A stretch of DNA of 64,000 bases, taken from contig JAFXXU010000058.1 in assembly GCA_017542125.1 (NCBI GenBank), positions 336,371 through 400,370 of the forward strand. Reading direction: 5' to 3'. The translations under genes and the position numbers were made by a program. Numbering within the stretch: position 1 is the first letter of the stretch; every line of letters begins with the position of its first letter. Shown piece by piece: positions 39,413-45,188 of the stretch. The notes under the pieces were generated by a model. That model ran no database searches and was not told the DNA's origin. It saw only the letters and a program-made list of their open reading frames with translations. This DNA is from Ruminococcus sp. GTDB lineage: Bacteria > Bacillota > Clostridia > Oscillospirales > Ruminococcaceae.

Positions 39413-40132
39413 CTATATGACAGAGCTGTCGGAGCTGCTGTCTTCTGTCTTGAAAAGCTCTTTAAGAGCCTCAGTGCGGTCCTTTCCTGTAAGGACATCG
39501 CCGTTCTTTGTGACGCTTTTCAGCCCGAAATCGGTATAAGTATAACCGTCGTGGACTACCCTGAACACAAACACATATTGATCTGTGCCTGACAGGTCAG
39601 TTCCCTTTACAGTTATGATCCTCTCATCACCGTTGACCGAAAGCTCGTAATCCACATCCTTCAAAGCACGCCCGACGGCTTTTTCAAAGGATTCATAAGC
39701 CGCAAAGCTCTTGAATTCCGAAATGGATGTCATAGCTTCATTCTTGACAGCCTGTAGAACAGTATCATTATCAACAAATAAGCCGCTGATAAAGCCGTTG
39801 CCGATGGCCCCGTAGGAAAAACAGATAAGACAAACAACGGCAAGCGCAGTATTCTGCCTGAAGATCATACATCTCTTGAAGAGATAGACTGTAGGCAGCA
39901 AAACAAACCAAGGGCTGCCTATCTGCTCATAGCCCGCACTCAGAAGATTGCGGCGGTCAATATAGCAGCACAGTGGCCTTGCGGTAATGACTATTCCCCA
40001 GATCAAAAACCCGAGATATTTGTTCAGGGCAAAACGTTCCAAAAGCAATGCCACAGCAGGAACGAATGCGCAGTACCAGACAAGACCGTCCCTGACCTTG
40101 CCGCGGACGCTTGTCTCAGGATTGGTAGACAT
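39413..40132 (-). CDS. Membrane protein with soluble C-terminal domain, unknown function
   Basis: 239 residues. About four hydrophobic segments fill residues 17-110 (with YIDRRNLLSAGYEQIGSPW between), then a roughly 130-residue soluble domain with strand-rich sequence (RIITVKGTDLSG, YVFVFRVVHDGYTY) and an acidic serine tail. I do not recognise the family. AAGGTGA precedes the ATG. It is divergent from the Spo0A-like gene across a 235-base intergenic region. Confidence 0.7.
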   Translation of the reverse strand: MSTNPETSVRGKVRDGLVWYCAFVPAVALLLERFALNKYLGFLIWGIVITARPLCCYIDRRNLLSAGYEQIGSPWFVLLPTVYLFKRCMIFRQNTALAVVCLICFSYGAIGNGFISGLFVDNDTVLQAVKNEAMTSISEFKSFAAYESFEKAVGRALKDVDYELSVNGDERIITVKGTDLSGTDQYVFVFRVVHDGYTYTDFGLKSVTKNGDVLTGKDRTEALKELFKTEDSSSDSSVI

Positions 40133-40286: not shown

Positions 40287-40315
40287 TTGATTTGTCGGAA
40301 GAATAAGAATATAAT
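40287..40315 (+). promoter_or_regulatory. Promoter of the Spo0A-like gene with embedded 0A-box-like site
   Basis: TTGATT (40287-40292), 17-base spacer, TATAAT (40310-40315), about 50 bases before the start codon. TTGTCGGAA at 40292-40300, just downstream of the -35 element, is one mismatch from the 0A box TTGTCGAA bound by Spo0A. The rest of the 40133-40355 intergenic region is AT-rich with no other clear element. Confidence 0.6.
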
Positions 40316-40367
40316 CATATTTGTCCCTAGGAACCAAGACAGATAACAAACATCAATGGAGGAAATG

Positions 40368-41099
40368 ATGAAAGACACAAACTACATTATCGAGTCCTTT
40401 TCCAACGAGTTCACGGAAAAGGTAAACCAGCACCTCATAGGAGAGGACGTTACCGTTATGTATGCAGATATCGGAACTGCAAAGCTTTGCTCCGATTCAG
40501 GTCTGAAAAACGTGAGGGCTATCTTTGTCAGCTCAAAGCAGGAAGCTCATATCTACAACACAATTCTCAGGCTGACGGAGAGCGATCCTTACATCTTCGT
40601 AGTATCCGAAACGGAAACAGACGAAGGCACCGAGAACAACACAGCCATCCTCAGCGGGCGCGAGGATCCCAAGCAGATAGCCGCTATGCTTATGAGGCTT
40701 ATCGAGATCCAGGAATACAACCGCAGGAAGGAATTGGAGAAAAGGCTTGAAAACCACGTTGCCGACCTGCTTATGAGCGGCGATATCACTCCGGAATATC
40801 TGGGCTTCCACTACATCAAGGAGGCTATCCTGATCTACATAAATACCGAGATCCGTGATTACAATCTCAAGGACAAGGTCTATCAGCAGATCGCAGAAAC
40901 TCATATGACCACTACTGTATCAATAGAGCGCAGCATCCGCTGCTCGATAATAAGAAGCTGGGAGAACAGCCCCTTTGAGTTCCGCCAGAAGTATTTCGGA
41001 ACTCTGGGCATCAAGAAGATCAAGGTCCCCTCTCCCAAGGAATACATAATGACTATCGCAGAAAAGGTGAAGCGCGATCTTAAAAACGGCGAGATATAA
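40368..41099 (+). CDS. Spo0A C-terminal-domain protein with degenerate N-terminal half
   Basis: 243 residues. The C-terminal half (about 130-243) matches the Spo0A effector domain: ITPEYLGFHYIKEAI corresponds to the domain's first helices, TTTVSIERSIRCSIIRSW to the recognition helix (TTASRVERAIRHAIEVAW in Bacillus), and PSPKEYIMTIAEKVK to its last helix. The N-terminal half has alternating strands and helices like a receiver domain but shows no phospho-acceptor Asp motif or acidic pair. It may be a phosphorylation-independent Spo0A relative. The ATG at 40368 follows GGAGG by five bases; earlier in-frame ATGs overlap the site. Monocistronic, on the opposite strand to its neighbours. Confidence 0.88.
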   Translation: MKDTNYIIESFSNEFTEKVNQHLIGEDVTVMYADIGTAKLCSDSGLKNVRAIFVSSKQEAHIYNTILRLTESDPYIFVVSETETDEGTENNTAILSGREDPKQIAAMLMRLIEIQEYNRRKELEKRLENHVADLLMSGDITPEYLGFHYIKEAILIYINTEIRDYNLKDKVYQQIAETHMTTTVSIERSIRCSIIRSWENSPFEFRQKYFGTLGIKKIKVPSPKEYIMTIAEKVKRDLKNGEI

Positions 41100-41100
41100 G

Positions 41101-41130
41101 CATCCCGCAAAGGGCTTGCTCTGCGGGATG
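41101..41130 (+). terminator. Probable terminator of the Spo0A-like gene
   Basis: ATCCCGCA (41102-41109) pairs with TGCGGGAT (41122-41129) around a 12-base loop just past the stop. The following tract is GGTATATATAT, not a T-run, so termination may be weak. Confidence 0.5.
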
Positions 41131-41325: not shown

Positions 41326-42906
41326 TTATTTCGGAGCGAACCTTGACATTATCTCCAGCGCTACCTTTATCCCGTCTACCGCAGCTGACATAATGCCGCC
41401 TGCATAGCCGGCGCCCTCGCCGCAGGGAAACAGGTTTTCAAGGGTAAGAGAATTGAGCTTCTCCCCTCTTGTGATCCTTACGGGGGAGCTGGTGCGGGTC
41501 TCGGGAGCAGTCAGCATTGCATCGCCGCTGCCGAAACATTTCATTTTGCGTGAGAAATCGTGAAGCCCGTATCTCAGAGCATCGCAAATATTTTTTGGGA
41601 ACAGCTTATCAAGCTCGACAGGCAAAACTCCGCGAGCATAGCTGGGAGTTACGCTGCCCGAAAGCTCAGCTTTTCCGATAAAGAAACCTCTGACTGAGGT
41701 CGCGGGTGCTTTATATGAGCCGGTAAGCTTGAAAGCTCTCTGCTCGATGCTTCGGGCGAAATACATCCCGTCAAGGGGCGAAATACCGTAATCCTTCGGC
41801 GATACAGCGACAGCTATCGCAGCATTGGCGTTCTCGCCGTCGCGTGCGAACTCGCTCATACCGTTGGTAACAACAGAGTTTTCCTCCGAGGCAGCCGGAA
41901 CGACCACCCCACCGGGGCACATACAGAATGTATAGACTGCTCTGCCTGTGCTGTCCTTTGCAGAAAGCTGATACTCGCCCTTGGGCAGGAGCGGCTCTCC
42001 CGCAAACTTGCCGTAGAGGCTCTCATCCACATCTCTCTGCTTATGCTCTATCCTGACACCTACCGAGAAAGGCTTGGGTTCGAGAAAAACGCCCTTCCCT
42101 GCAAGCATCTCAAAGGTATCTCGGGCTGAATGGCCTGTAGCCATAACAAGCGCCGAGCAGCTCTCGGAGCCTCCTCGGTAACGGACGGAAGCCACACGGC
42201 TGTCGATGATATCAATATCCTCAACAGGCGAGAGGAACCTTACCTCTCCGCCCAGCTCGATGACCCTTTCCCGTATCTTCTTGACTATACCCCGGAGCTT
42301 ATCCGTGCCGATATGGGGCTTTGCCTTTGAAAGTATCTCTTCGGGAGCGCCGAACCGGACGAACTGCTCCAGCACATATCTGCAAAGAGGATCCTTGATA
42401 CGGGTAGTGAGCTTGCCGTCGGAAAAGGTGCCGGCGCCTCCTTCACCGAACTGGACATTACTTTCGGTATCCAGCGCTCCGCCCTTCCAGAACCCGCTGA
42501 CAGCCTTCACTCTGCTGTCAACATCGCCTCCGCGCTCAAATACTATGGGCGAGTAACCGTTCTCGGCCAGCACAAGAGCACAGAACATCCCCGCAGGTCC
42601 GAAGCCGGCGATACATACTCTGCCCTCCTGCTCTGAAGTTCCGAAGACAGGGCTCACAGAGCACGGAGCAACATAAACTGCATCGGAGCAGCGCTTTACG
42701 ACATCTCTCTCCTCTTCCTCGGAAGAAAGCTCTGCATAGACCGAATGAACGTAGTGTATATCGCTGCGCTTCCTGGCGTCGAGAGAGGTCTTGTAGACCG
42801 TAGCCTTAACTGCTCTGCCTATCCCGGCTGCCCTCAGCGCAGATGTAATGACCTCGCTGCTGTCTGCCGAAAGTCCGCTCTTTATATTGTTGATAACTAT
42901 CGGCAT
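41326..42906 (-). CDS. FAD-dependent oxidoreductase of the cdaA-cdaR-linked type
   Basis: 526 residues. A dinucleotide-binding motif CIAGFGPAGMFCALVLAENG appears near residue 100, followed by VFERGGDVDSR and NVQFGEGGAGTFSDGKLTTR, with a C-terminal GEGAGYAGGIMSAAVDG that closes the FAD site. This is the large, uncharacterised 'FAD-dependent dehydrogenase' family often found beside cdaA-cdaR in Clostridia. The N-terminal 90 residues form a separate small domain. ATG at 42906 chosen over the in-frame TTG at 42921 by spacing from GGAG. A hairpin terminator separates it from cdaR. Confidence 0.85.
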   Translation of the reverse strand: MPIVINNIKSGLSADSSEVITSALRAAGIGRAVKATVYKTSLDARKRSDIHYVHSVYAELSSEEEERDVVKRCSDAVYVAPCSVSPVFGTSEQEGRVCIAGFGPAGMFCALVLAENGYSPIVFERGGDVDSRVKAVSGFWKGGALDTESNVQFGEGGAGTFSDGKLTTRIKDPLCRYVLEQFVRFGAPEEILSKAKPHIGTDKLRGIVKKIRERVIELGGEVRFLSPVEDIDIIDSRVASVRYRGGSESCSALVMATGHSARDTFEMLAGKGVFLEPKPFSVGVRIEHKQRDVDESLYGKFAGEPLLPKGEYQLSAKDSTGRAVYTFCMCPGGVVVPAASEENSVVTNGMSEFARDGENANAAIAVAVSPKDYGISPLDGMYFARSIEQRAFKLTGSYKAPATSVRGFFIGKAELSGSVTPSYARGVLPVELDKLFPKNICDALRYGLHDFSRKMKCFGSGDAMLTAPETRTSSPVRITRGEKLNSLTLENLFPCGEGAGYAGGIMSAAVDGIKVALEIMSRFAPK

Positions 42907-42919
42907 ATACATCAACTCC

Positions 42920-42955
42920 AAAACAGCTGCCGTGCTTATGCTGCACGGCAGCCTA
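42920..42955 (-). terminator. Hairpin terminator/attenuator between cdaR and the FAD oxidoreductase
   Basis: Perfect ten-base stem GCTGCCGTGC/GCACGGCAGC (42943-42952 and 42926-42935 on the minus strand) followed by TGTTTTGG. The oxidoreductase ribosome site begins directly after it. Confidence 0.8.
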
Positions 42956-42960
42956 TTGTT

Positions 42961-44280
42961 TTATTCGCTATCGGCATTTGATGAGCTGTCGCTGGTCTTT
43001 TCAGAGATCTCCAGCTGAACTACCTGATCCCCGATGCACCAGATATCATCATAGGAATTCGAGTAGATAGTTACAGAGTGAGCTATGGAGCCGGTCGTAG
43101 CGATATCGGAAAGATCCACCACAGCGGTTAGGCTGTCAAGATCAAGATCCGAAATGGATGACTCGGGACCGAACATCGTTACAGAAGGCAGCTGCTTGGT
43201 GTCGATGACCACCTTGGTATTGGCAGGCGCATTGGTGATCTTGATGGAGCTTGCCGGTATGATAAAGTTCTTCGACATATAATTGTTGGTAGCAAAGTCA
43301 AAGGAAACTGTCACCGTATCAATACCGCTCTGGTTTACCTCACCGGAAGCGATCTTACCGTTGACGTCAAAGGTGAATTCCTCACCGTCCTGTATCCGTT
43401 TGAGAGATATGGAGCCCAGGCTCAGCGTCTGTACGGAGACATCCTCGAGGTTGGGGGTTATGATACCTATCTGGCTTTCCGAAAGCTTATACGGGATGGA
43501 AGAAGTATCAAAACCGGGAGGACAGTCGGTAAAGTCAACTGTGAAGTTAACGGTCTTCTTCTTGTAAACATCAAAGGTGATATCGAACTTCTCAGCGTCA
43601 AGCACCTTAAACTTGGAAGAATCCAGCTCCTGATTGTTCTCATCGTAGAATATGATCTGATCGGTAGAGAGGGTAGCAGCCTCGGAAAGTGTGGCATCCT
43701 CAGTATATCTCGCCTCTACCTTGCTGATCTTCCTGAGCTCTGCAGAAGAGCCCTGGACATTGACCACGCTTGGGGATACCGTCATTTCCTTGAGGGTCTT
43801 GCCCTGCTCCGCCTTAACGTTGGGAGCGCTGGGCACTACCTCAAACTCGGAATTGTCGATATGAACGAATGTGACCTCCACCGTGCTGGGAGTTACCGAA
43901 AGCACATCGACTCTGTCAGAGCTGTGGGTGGACCGGACGTCTATATCAAGGGAATAGGTACCCTCTTTTGTAACATTGCTGACATTGACGGAAGCAGTAA
44001 GATCGTTGGCGCTGTAGCTGCCGATCTCATAGTTCATACCCTTGATCTCAACATCTACGGATATTTCCTTATAGCCGAGGGCCTGAAGGCCCTTTTCTTC
44101 GGCAGAGGTGCCGTCCATGGAGAAGGAAACGGGTATATTGGTAATAGTCTTGTTTATGGTGGGGTACTCGGTTATGGAAAGGATGAGCCAGACAAGGATA
44201 GCTATTATCAGAGCAAGCACCTTAAGGCTAAGATCCTTGATGTAGATCCCCGAGCCCTTTTTCTTCTCTACTTTTTCCAT
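42961..44280 (-). CDS. cdaR: YbbR-domain protein CdaR, regulator of diadenylate cyclase
   Basis: Membrane-anchored extracellular regulator of CdaA. 439 residues: cytoplasmic basic start, one membrane segment (about 13-33, LSLKVLALIIAILVWLIL), then several YbbR repeats of about 80-90 residues (motifs such as PSTVEVTFV, PSVVNVQGS, DVSVQTLSLGS). The C-terminus is a Ser/Asp-rich tail. The ATG overlaps the cdaA 3' end by 13 bases. cdaA-cdaR is the standard c-di-AMP pair of Firmicutes. Confidence 0.93.
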   Translation of the reverse strand: MEKVEKKKGSGIYIKDLSLKVLALIIAILVWLILSITEYPTINKTITNIPVSFSMDGTSAEEKGLQALGYKEISVDVEIKGMNYEIGSYSANDLTASVNVSNVTKEGTYSLDIDVRSTHSSDRVDVLSVTPSTVEVTFVHIDNSEFEVVPSAPNVKAEQGKTLKEMTVSPSVVNVQGSSAELRKISKVEARYTEDATLSEAATLSTDQIIFYDENNQELDSSKFKVLDAEKFDITFDVYKKKTVNFTVDFTDCPPGFDTSSIPYKLSESQIGIITPNLEDVSVQTLSLGSISLKRIQDGEEFTFDVNGKIASGEVNQSGIDTVTVSFDFATNNYMSKNFIIPASSIKITNAPANTKVVIDTKQLPSVTMFGPESSISDLDLDSLTAVVDLSDIATTGSIAHSVTIYSNSYDDIWCIGDQVVQLEISEKTSDSSSNADSE

Positions 44281-45146
44281 TTTGACATCACCCTTCCCGC
44301 AAAGGAGCTTTCCTTTGCAGCCTCGCCGCTTGACTCGGGAACAAGGCTGAGCATAAGCATCTTCTTAAGAGAATCCTTGGTGTAGCCTCTGGTGAGCTCG
44401 CCGTTCTCGGCTACGGAGATAGCTCCCGTCTCCTCAGAAACGACTATAACGATAGCATCGGAGTTCTCGCTCATGCCTATAGCCGCCCTGTGCCTTGAAC
44501 CCAGCTGCTTGTCAATAAGCTCCTCCTTCTGAGGCTTCGGCAGAAAGCATCCGGCAGCAAGGATATTTCCGTCTCTCAGTATGACCGCACCGTCGTGCAG
44601 AGGTGTGTTCGGGAAGAAGATGTTCCCAAGCACCGCCGCCGAGGGGGTACAGTTGAGCACAGTACCCGTGGCGATCTGCTCGCCCAGCTTGGTGGTCCTC
44701 TCAAATATTATGAGCGCACCCGTCTTGGTGGATGAAAGATCGGCAGAAGCCTCACAGACGGCATCTATACATTCTCTCATCTTGATAATGTTGTTTTCAT
44801 CCTCGCTGCTGCCGAATATCTGGAACCGGGTGAACCGCGTTCGTCCCATCTTTTCCAGAATACGCCGGAACTCCGGCTGGAACAGGATAATAATGGCGAG
44901 TATTCCCCACTGGAACAGCAGCTTCAGCAGATACCGCATCGTCTGTAATCTCAGGAAAACAGCGATCAGATAGAAGGCTATCATAAACAGTATGCCCTTT
45001 ACGAGCTGCTGAGCTCTGGTCTCCCTGATAAGCAGGATACCGTGATATATAAGAAATGTAAGGATAATGATATCAATGATATCGGATATCCGGATAGATT
45101 TGAAAACGTTCCACACTGAAAGCAGAGCGTCGGTGACAGCACCCAA
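44268..45146 (-). CDS. cdaA: Membrane diadenylate cyclase CdaA
   Basis: Condenses two ATP to c-di-AMP. About 292 residues: three membrane segments in the first 95 residues, a coiled linker, then the DisA_N domain with FERTTKLGE, LHDGAVILRD (catalytic DGA) and GSRHRAAIGMSE (RHR). I place the start at TTG 45146, eight bases after GGGGAG. The in-frame ATG at 45185 has no ribosome site and lies before a GCGGC/GCCGC hairpin. The C-terminal tail (about 30 residues) is non-conserved. Confidence 0.94.
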   Translation of the reverse strand: MGAVTDALLSVWNVFKSIRISDIIDIIILTFLIYHGILLIRETRAQQLVKGILFMIAFYLIAVFLRLQTMRYLLKLLFQWGILAIIILFQPEFRRILEKMGRTRFTRFQIFGSSEDENNIIKMRECIDAVCEASADLSSTKTGALIIFERTTKLGEQIATGTVLNCTPSAAVLGNIFFPNTPLHDGAVILRDGNILAAGCFLPKPQKEELIDKQLGSRHRAAIGMSENSDAIVIVVSEETGAISVAENGELTRGYTKDSLKKMLMLSLVPESSGEAAKESSFAGRVMSKWKK

Positions 45147-45188
45147 AATGATCACTCCCCGCGGCAAAGCCGCAAAATATGACAAATT

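What the first reader, a model, noticed from the sequence alone, without database searches (positions are those of the whole stretch)
40368..41099. Receiver-degenerate Spo0A relative
The DNA-binding half keeps the Spo0A helices and recognition helix, while the N-terminal half shows no phospho-acceptor aspartate. A Spo0A-type protein freed from the phosphorelay could act constitutively, or sense something directly through its altered N-terminal domain. It is isolated on the opposite strand, not in a spoIVB-spo0A context.
Basis: partly seen in the sequence, partly recalled or inferred. Interest (0 to 1): 0.75.

Follow-up and report, generated by a model that had tools for sequence, protein, structure and literature searches.

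The report
Spo0A relative with a dead switch
A gut Ruminococcus carries, beside its normal sporulation master switch Spo0A, fast-changing extra copies that keep the DNA-binding half but have lost the phosphate-receiving site, so they probably act without the usual on/off signal.

Summary
Confirmed. Window 40368-41099 (+) encodes a 243-aa protein with a Spo0A_C domain (63.8 bits, cut-off 25) and no Response_reg match. Its N half is a decayed receiver (hhalign 60.2; shuffles at most 16.7). Acceptor Asp, second acidic residue and Lys are missing at the aligned columns in nine of nine full-length relatives. The genome also has a canonical Spo0A with an intact pocket and a third, more degenerate copy near rpsB. 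The gene keeps its place beside fadOx-ybbR-cdaA in 8 of 10 Ruminococcus genomes that can be judged. It evolves very fast: 19% (N) and 33% (C) mean identity, against 82% and 92% for canonical Spo0A of the same genomes; yet dN/dS is 0.14 in the one pair tested. Upstream lie sigma-A promoters (8 of 9) and more 0A boxes than before other genes (exact box 3 of 10 against 1 of 83). Best reading: a phosphorylation-independent regulator inside the Spo0A network, made in growing cells. The spoIVB argument fails: canonical spo0A is not beside spoIVB either.

The parts
40368..41099 (+). coding sequence of the receiver-degenerate Spo0A_C protein (243 aa; 247 aa if read from 40356)
40362..40709 (+). N-terminal decayed receiver (pseudo-receiver), P0001 residues 3-118, as aligned to canonical Spo0A receivers
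   Evidence: hhalign
40758..41066 (+). Spo0A_C DNA-binding domain, P0001 residues 135-237
40917..40961 (+). recognition-helix region VSIERSIRCSIIRSW; keeps E213/R214/R217 equivalents, lacks R211 and H218
40287..40315 (+). sigma-A-type promoter TTGATT-17-TATAAT upstream of the gene
40293..40299 (+). 0A-box-like heptamer TGTCGGA in the promoter spacer, one mismatch to TGTCGAA, starting 75 bases before the ATG at 40368; such boxes are enriched upstream of the relatives as a set, this single one proves nothing
40358..40362 (+). ribosome-binding site GGAGG
41101..41130 (.). 12-pair hairpin just after the stop, between the convergent genes; terminator-like on the - strand
   Evidence: number of such sites no higher than in shuffles
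41326..42921 (-). FAD-dependent protein, conserved convergent neighbour
42961..45185 (-). ybbR and cdaA (di-adenylate cyclase), conserved neighbours
39413..40132 (-). divergent membrane-protein-like gene; a homologue also found in five other loci that hold the gene (L092, L093, L095, L096, L097), not found in L098 and L102

Best explanation
It is a paralogue of Spo0A whose receiver has decayed into a pseudo-receiver. It is made in growing cells from its own sigma-A promoter. It works as a DNA-binding regulator that does not wait for Asp phosphorylation, and its activity is set mainly by how much is made. Its upstream region carries 0A boxes, so it is wired into the Spo0A network: Spo0A~P or the paralogue itself, or both, would set its level. 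It most likely binds 0A-box-like sites, since it keeps the E/R/..R core of the recognition helix, and so competes with or tempers canonical Spo0A~P at some promoters. Shown by computation: domain make-up, loss of pocket residues, coexistence with an intact Spo0A, conserved place, fast divergence with purifying selection in one pair, promoter, box enrichment. Inferred: DNA binding, who binds the boxes, competition with Spo0A, direction of the effect.
For: Spo0A_C above cut-off, no Response_reg. N half aligns with Spo0A receivers over 121 columns, hhalign probability 96.4, score 60.2; best of 100 column shuffles 16.7, reversed 12.9. Acceptor Asp, second acidic residue and switch Lys missing at the aligned columns in 9 of 9 full-length relatives. 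Canonical Spo0A with intact pocket in the same genome. Same place beside fadOx-ybbR-cdaA in 8 genomes. dN/dS in the one pair tested (G008/G010) 0.14 overall, N half 0.19, C half 0.095 by NG86; canonical Spo0A of the same pair 0.025. Sigma-A promoter of at least 10/12 in 8 of 9 upstream regions, shuffles mean 0.52, max 3, 0 of 300 as high. 0A boxes (at most one mismatch, G2 and C4 kept) in the 200 bases upstream: 11 in 10 regions, against 32 in 83 control regions of the same genus; 12 of 20000 draws of ten controls reach 11. Exact boxes in 3 of 10 against 1 of 83. Shuffles mean 3.4, 0 of 400 as high. In C. difficile boxes of bound promoters lie 67-82 bases before the start (PMC3485338, passages); the window's begins 75 before. 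The isolated Spo0A DNA-binding domain binds targets without phosphorylation (same passages). Gut phages carry Spo0A copies with no receiver at all (PMC10294663, passages). spoIVA is found in 15 of 16 genus genomes, own included.
Against: R211 and H218 equivalents are lost in 10 of 10 relatives of the window type, and 4 of the 10 have E-H or D-H in place of E-R, so the protein's own sites may not be 0A boxes. The upstream boxes could serve canonical Spo0A alone. Three of 10 upstream regions have no box within 200 bases (L092, L094, L097; starts of the first two are uncertain). The control regions come from rough gene calls in related loci and are a little richer in GC, 0.39 against 0.32. The C-domain tree does not join the relatives into one clade but gives two starred groups. 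Two genomes lack the gene at the locus: G003 has an empty site, and G014 shows no match in the 818 bases past fadOx. In Spo0A an unphosphorylated receiver inhibits DNA binding, so a dead receiver could also lock the protein off (PMC3485338).
Confidence: 0.5

Rival explanations
1. A phosphorylation-independent regulator whose own binding sites have left the Spo0A regulon: it is perhaps controlled by Spo0A, but binds its own, fast-changing sites and controls something other than sporulation.
For: R211 and H218 equivalents lost in all ten, E213/R214 changed to D-H or E-H in four of ten; fast divergence of the C domain, mean 33% identity while canonical stays at 92%; vegetative promoter.
Against: R217 equivalent and the FG motif kept in ten of ten; the window protein keeps E-R..R; 0A boxes enriched upstream of its own gene.
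Confidence: 0.26
2. A partner that pairs with canonical Spo0A through the pseudo-receiver or the DNA-binding domain and blocks or alters it, without its own site choice.
For: Every one of the 16 genus genomes has a canonical Spo0A; receiver fold traceable.
Against: The N domain is hardly conserved (one invariant column) while canonical Spo0A barely changes, so a kept interface is not visible.
Confidence: 0.12
3. A ligand sensor: the altered N-terminal domain binds a small molecule directly (c-di-AMP would be the natural guess from the neighbour cdaA).
For: Conserved place next to cdaA in eight genomes; pseudo-receivers that respond to ligands are known (recalled).
Against: One invariant N-domain column in nine relatives; the gene is convergent with the cdaA operon, not co-transcribed; relatives in G009, G002 and R. 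bicirculans have other neighbours.
Confidence: 0.08
4. A decaying duplicate without function.
For: Low identity; one empty site and one further locus without it; L092 lacks a usual start codon at its 5' end.
Against: Open frame from a usual start codon in nine of ten relatives, dN/dS 0.14 in the one pair tested, promoter kept in 8 of 9.
Confidence: 0.04

Closest known systems
Spo0A (Pfam PF08769 + PF00072; NCBIfam TIGR02875)
   Same: Two-domain order, Spo0A_C effector domain, R217 and FG motif, receiver-derived N half.
   Different: Phosphorylation pocket residues missing; 47 bits against the family cut-off of 200; evolves far faster than canonical Spo0A of the same genomes; extra to an intact Spo0A.
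Receiver-less Spo0A homologues of gut phages (PMC10294663, passages read)
   Same: Spo0A DNA-binding half without a phosphorylatable receiver; proposed there to act without host signals. The C half of the window protein matches two PHROG families of unknown function (40.7 and 32.8 bits).
   Different: Here chromosomal, mostly in a conserved place among core genes, with a pseudo-receiver kept; tblastn of the protein finds no match in 50,697 phage records at E 0.01.
Atypical response regulators with pseudo-receivers (GlnR of actinomycetes is called atypical in an abstract listed; FrzS, NblR, ChxR recalled)
   Same: Receiver fold without usable phospho-acceptor chemistry.
   Different: Other effector domains; no case with a Spo0A_C effector turned up in the searches made (listings and some passages seen).

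Membership tests
Spo0A (equivalog) | Spo0A_C effector domain over the curated cut-off | tested here: met
   63.8 bits, cut-off 25
Spo0A (equivalog) | whole-protein score over the spore_0_A cut-off | tested here: not met
   47.1 bits, cut-off 200; the canonical protein of the same genome 267.3
Spo0A (equivalog) | receiver with acidic pair, acceptor Asp, Ser/Thr and Lys | tested here: not met
   no Response_reg match
Spo0A (equivalog) | recognition-helix residues R211, E213, R214, R217, H218 (list of contact residues recalled, numbering) | tested here: inconclusive
   three of five kept in the window protein
Spo0A (equivalog) | binds TGTCGAA boxes and controls sporulation entry | not testable with these tools
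   needs binding and genetic data; boxes are enriched upstream of its own gene, which does not show what binds them
Pseudo-receiver (atypical) response regulator | N domain homologous to receivers | tested here: met
   hhalign 96.4%, score 60.2 against at most 16.7 in 100 column shuffles
Pseudo-receiver (atypical) response regulator | phosphorylation chemistry absent | tested here: met
   by sequence only, 9 of 9 full-length relatives at the aligned columns
Pseudo-receiver (atypical) response regulator | receiver fold retained | not testable with these tools
Phage receiver-less Spo0A | effector domain alone, in a phage genome | tested here: not met
   two domains; core chromosomal neighbours; no phage record matched

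The most novel reading that the evidence does not exclude
Ruminococcus runs sporulation (or what is left of it) with a layered, partly phosphorylation-independent Spo0A network. Two sets of receiver-dead Spo0A paralogues, at the cdaA and rpsB loci, have 0A boxes upstream and recognition helices that change quickly. In one clade the canonical Spo0A itself carries a Glu in place of the acceptor Asp. The paralogues would act as dose-set competitors of the master regulator, in an evolutionary race over who controls the 0A regulon.
Probability: 0.24. Interest if true: 0.8.

Novelty: new variant of a known kind. Interest (0 to 1): 0.55.

Why it matters
Surveys use the Spo0A_C domain as the mark of Spo0A and of sporulation potential; [quoted passage not shown] In this genus the domain also marks receiver-dead paralogues, so such counts can over-call Spo0A. 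If the paralogues bind 0A sites, they offer a natural way to change sporulation decisions in gut commensals without touching the phosphorylation pathway. Relatives exist in Ruminococcus sp. Marseille-P6503 and R. bicirculans 80/3 (that both are in culture is recalled).

Tried and rejected
Prophage or mobile origin: disfavoured; the neighbours are core genes kept in order and no phage record matched, though the C half matches two PHROG families weakly. N half as a new domain: rejected by profile comparison with controls. Partnership with the divergent gene 39413-40132: not general; no homologue found beside the gene in L098 and L102. First genome-contig scan with the single protein found nothing; the second needed a narrower alignment. 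A C. pasteurianum paper with many 'paralog' hits was irrelevant (passages). The spore_sigF search gave no match over its cut-off in any of 16 genomes, so I rest the sporulation gene set on spoIVA and spoIVB only.

A mended statement: after I judged by rough reckoning that 0A boxes upstream were near chance. Searches tested this and showed the opposite, an enrichment. For that reason the best explanation went from 0.45 to 0.5, the rival of a regulon left behind from 0.30 to 0.26, the novel case from 0.20 to 0.24 and the interest from 0.50 to 0.55. One search also showed that G014 reads 818 bases past fadOx without the gene, so the place is kept in 8 of 10, not 8 of 9, genomes that can be judged.

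Rows dropped: L092 was left out of the pocket, promoter and N-domain counts because no usual start codon lies at its 5' end. For L094 the promoter count used an internal ATG 72 bases downstream of the listed start. In L093 the -10 hexamer lies 7 bases from the listed start, so its true start is probably further down. dN/dS used one pair only; the other pairs were not run, because at such low identity they would be saturated. One of 11 rpsB-locus genes dropped out for lack of 200 bases upstream.

Full report
What is there. The window gene (40368-41099, +) encodes a protein with a Spo0A_C domain at residues 135-237 (63.8 bits, cut-off 25) and no Response_reg match. As a whole it fails the Spo0A equivalog model (47.1 of 200 bits), whereas the canonical Spo0A of the same genome scores 267.3. 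In the PDB its only sequence matches below E 0.1 are the Spo0A effector-domain entries 1fc3 and 1lq1. The start at 40368 fits the ribosome site GGAGG at 40358-40362 better than the ATG at 40356. The genes from recJ to the cysteine desulfurase on both sides lie on the other strand.

The genome holds three Spo0A_C proteins. One is canonical, with an intact pocket. One is the window gene. The third (G000:C67:77560-77826; L224 7135-7920) lies between tex and a ylmC-like PRC gene, rpsB and tsf, downstream of a sigma gene of the sigF/sigG kind whose spore_sigF score (283 bits) is below the cut-off (the names tex, ylmC, rpsB, tsf and sigG are recalled from the sequences). The canonical gene (C75) is flanked by a ROK-like gene and a phosphatase, followed by rpoC and rpoB (names recalled). 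spoIVB is on contig C11 (328.8 bits, cut-off 305). The absence of spoIVB next to the window gene therefore says nothing.

N-terminal half. An alignment of nine full-length relatives matches canonical Spo0A receivers over 121 columns (hhalign probability 96.4, score 60.2). One hundred column-shuffled versions reach at most 16.7 and the reversed alignment 12.9. At the aligned pocket the acceptor is S, T, C, P, G, T, T, S, S in the nine; the switch Lys is absent in nine of nine; the second acidic residue is absent in nine of nine (three of them gaps); the first is kept once (L095, beside a gap). L095 has an Asp one column on, L093 and L102 one two columns on, and L097 a Lys one column early, so small misalignments are possible there. 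A second alignment method leaves many of these columns as gaps, for the window protein all five, so the exact columns are less certain than the general loss. It is a decayed receiver rather than a replaced domain.

C-terminal half. Against B. subtilis numbering (assuming chain residue 1 of 1lq1 is residue 148), the window protein keeps E213, R214 and R217 equivalents and loses R211 and H218. Across ten relatives of the window type R217 and the FG motif are kept in ten, E-R at 213-214 in six, E-H in one and D-H in three; R211 and H218 are kept in none. Which of these residues touch bases is recalled. The C. difficile paper says that contacts fall on G2, C4 and G5 of TGTCGAA (PMC3485338, passages).

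Conserved place, fast change. A homologue sits at the same spot beside fadOx-ybbR-cdaA in eight genomes counting the window (window, L092, L093, L095, L096, L097, L098, L102), 211-493 bases past fadOx. G003 has fadOx followed by the next gene after 277 bases with no paralogue, an empty site, and G014 shows no match in 818 bases past fadOx. In G002, G007 and G009 the contig ends 316-425 bases past fadOx, too soon to tell, and in G001, G004 and G011 fadOx was not found. Relatives in G009 and G002 lie in other surroundings, as does one in R. bicirculans. Thirteen of 16 genus genomes have at least one non-canonical Spo0A_C protein over the cut-off, and all 16 have a canonical one. In the same nine genomes the mean pairwise identity is 19% (N) and 33% (C) for the paralogue and 82% and 92% for canonical Spo0A; invariant columns are 1 and 14 against 90 and 111. 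The C-domain tree splits the ten relatives into two starred groups, with R. bicirculans joining one; it does not show them as one clade and cannot resolve deeper forks (129 columns). In the one close pair tested (G008/G010) dN/dS is 0.14 (N 0.19, C 0.095, NG86), against 0.025 for canonical Spo0A and 0.09 for fadOx. It is fast but constrained in that pair.

Expression and wiring. A sigma-A-type promoter with at least 10 of 12 matches and a 17-base spacer lies within 150 bases upstream in 8 of 9 relatives; dinucleotide shuffles give a mean of 0.52 and at most 3. The plain scan of the window region finds the same promoter but no more sites than shuffles. This points to expression in growing cells rather than under a sporulation sigma factor. 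0A boxes (TGTCGAA with at most one mismatch, G2 and C4 kept) number 11 in the 200 bases upstream of ten relatives. Shuffles give a mean of 3.4, with 0 of 400 as high. Upstream of 83 other genes in genus loci there are 32, and ten controls drawn at random reach 11 in 12 of 20000 draws. With any one mismatch allowed the excess is weaker, 22 of 400 shuffles as high at 200 bases. Exact boxes stand before 3 of 10 relatives, 3 of 10 rpsB-locus paralogues, 0 of 16 canonical spo0A genes and 1 of 83 controls. Among 300 letter-permuted motifs, tested on 330-base regions, one does as well. The window's box has one mismatch, lies in the promoter spacer and begins 75 bases before the start; boxes of bound C. 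difficile promoters lie 67-82 bases before theirs (PMC3485338, passages).

Mechanism. In Spo0A the receiver inhibits the effector domain until phosphorylation, and the isolated effector binds DNA without it (PMC3485338). Gut phages carry effector-only Spo0A, proposed to act without host signals (PMC10294663, passages). The best reading is a dose-set, phosphorylation-independent Spo0A-family regulator, itself wired to 0A boxes, that tunes 0A-like sites. The main rival is that its own sites have moved elsewhere, which the recognition-helix changes make serious. Direct sensing is less likely because hardly anything in the N domain is conserved.

Related pattern. A second receiver-degenerate set sits near rpsB in 11 genus genomes (L100, L101, L103-L110, L224; in L109 the gene is 2.4 kb from the ylmC-like gene). 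Its pocket is mostly lost, but not always: L105 reads D-P-D-S-K at the five positions, L103 keeps two Asp, L100 and L101 one. In the wider family, non-canonical Spo0A_C proteins are mixed: of 24 examined, 10 have Asp at the acceptor column. Loss is therefore common there but not the rule.

Novelty. Eight full-text searches on the topic, two on contact residues and one phage search turned up no description of pseudo-receiver Spo0A paralogues on chromosomes. I saw listings, and passages of five papers. The library holds open-licence papers only, so absence from print is not shown. I rate it a new variant of a known kind.

Noticed in passing
L035, L043, L045, L046, L047 (genus genomes G010, G014, G008, G007, G002): Canonical Spo0A carries Glu instead of Asp at the phospho-acceptor in 5 of 16 genus genomes, the other four pocket residues kept; spoIVA is present in all five. 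Among 51 canonical rows 40 are D, 10 E, 1 N; the tree needs 7 changes, and its starred branches force at least 3 for the D and for the E group. Possibly a naturally phosphomimetic master regulator.
   Followed up: partly
L224 7135-7920 and L100, L101, L103-L110: Second, even more divergent receiver-degenerate Spo0A_C set near ylmC-rpsB-tsf, in some genomes directly after a sigF/sigG-type sigma gene; exact 0A boxes within 200 bases upstream in 3 of the 10 that could be read.
   Followed up: partly
L211-L219, L222 (family genomes): Stand-alone Spo0A_C proteins of 111-149 aa without any receiver; G105 has six and G019 eight Spo0A_C matches. They resemble the phage effector-only type; L211 may be a broken longer gene (a stop inside the match).
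   Followed up: no
L206 418-1179, L209 6110-6895: Spo0A_C proteins with an intact-looking receiver pocket (EDDSK at the five positions) directly beside a long ORF that may be a sensor protein: possible two-component pairs with a Spo0A_C output.
   Followed up: no
L092 upstream of 6909: The G012 relative has an open frame upstream but no ATG, GTG or TTG at its 5' end; a non-standard start or an assembly fault is possible.
   Followed up: no
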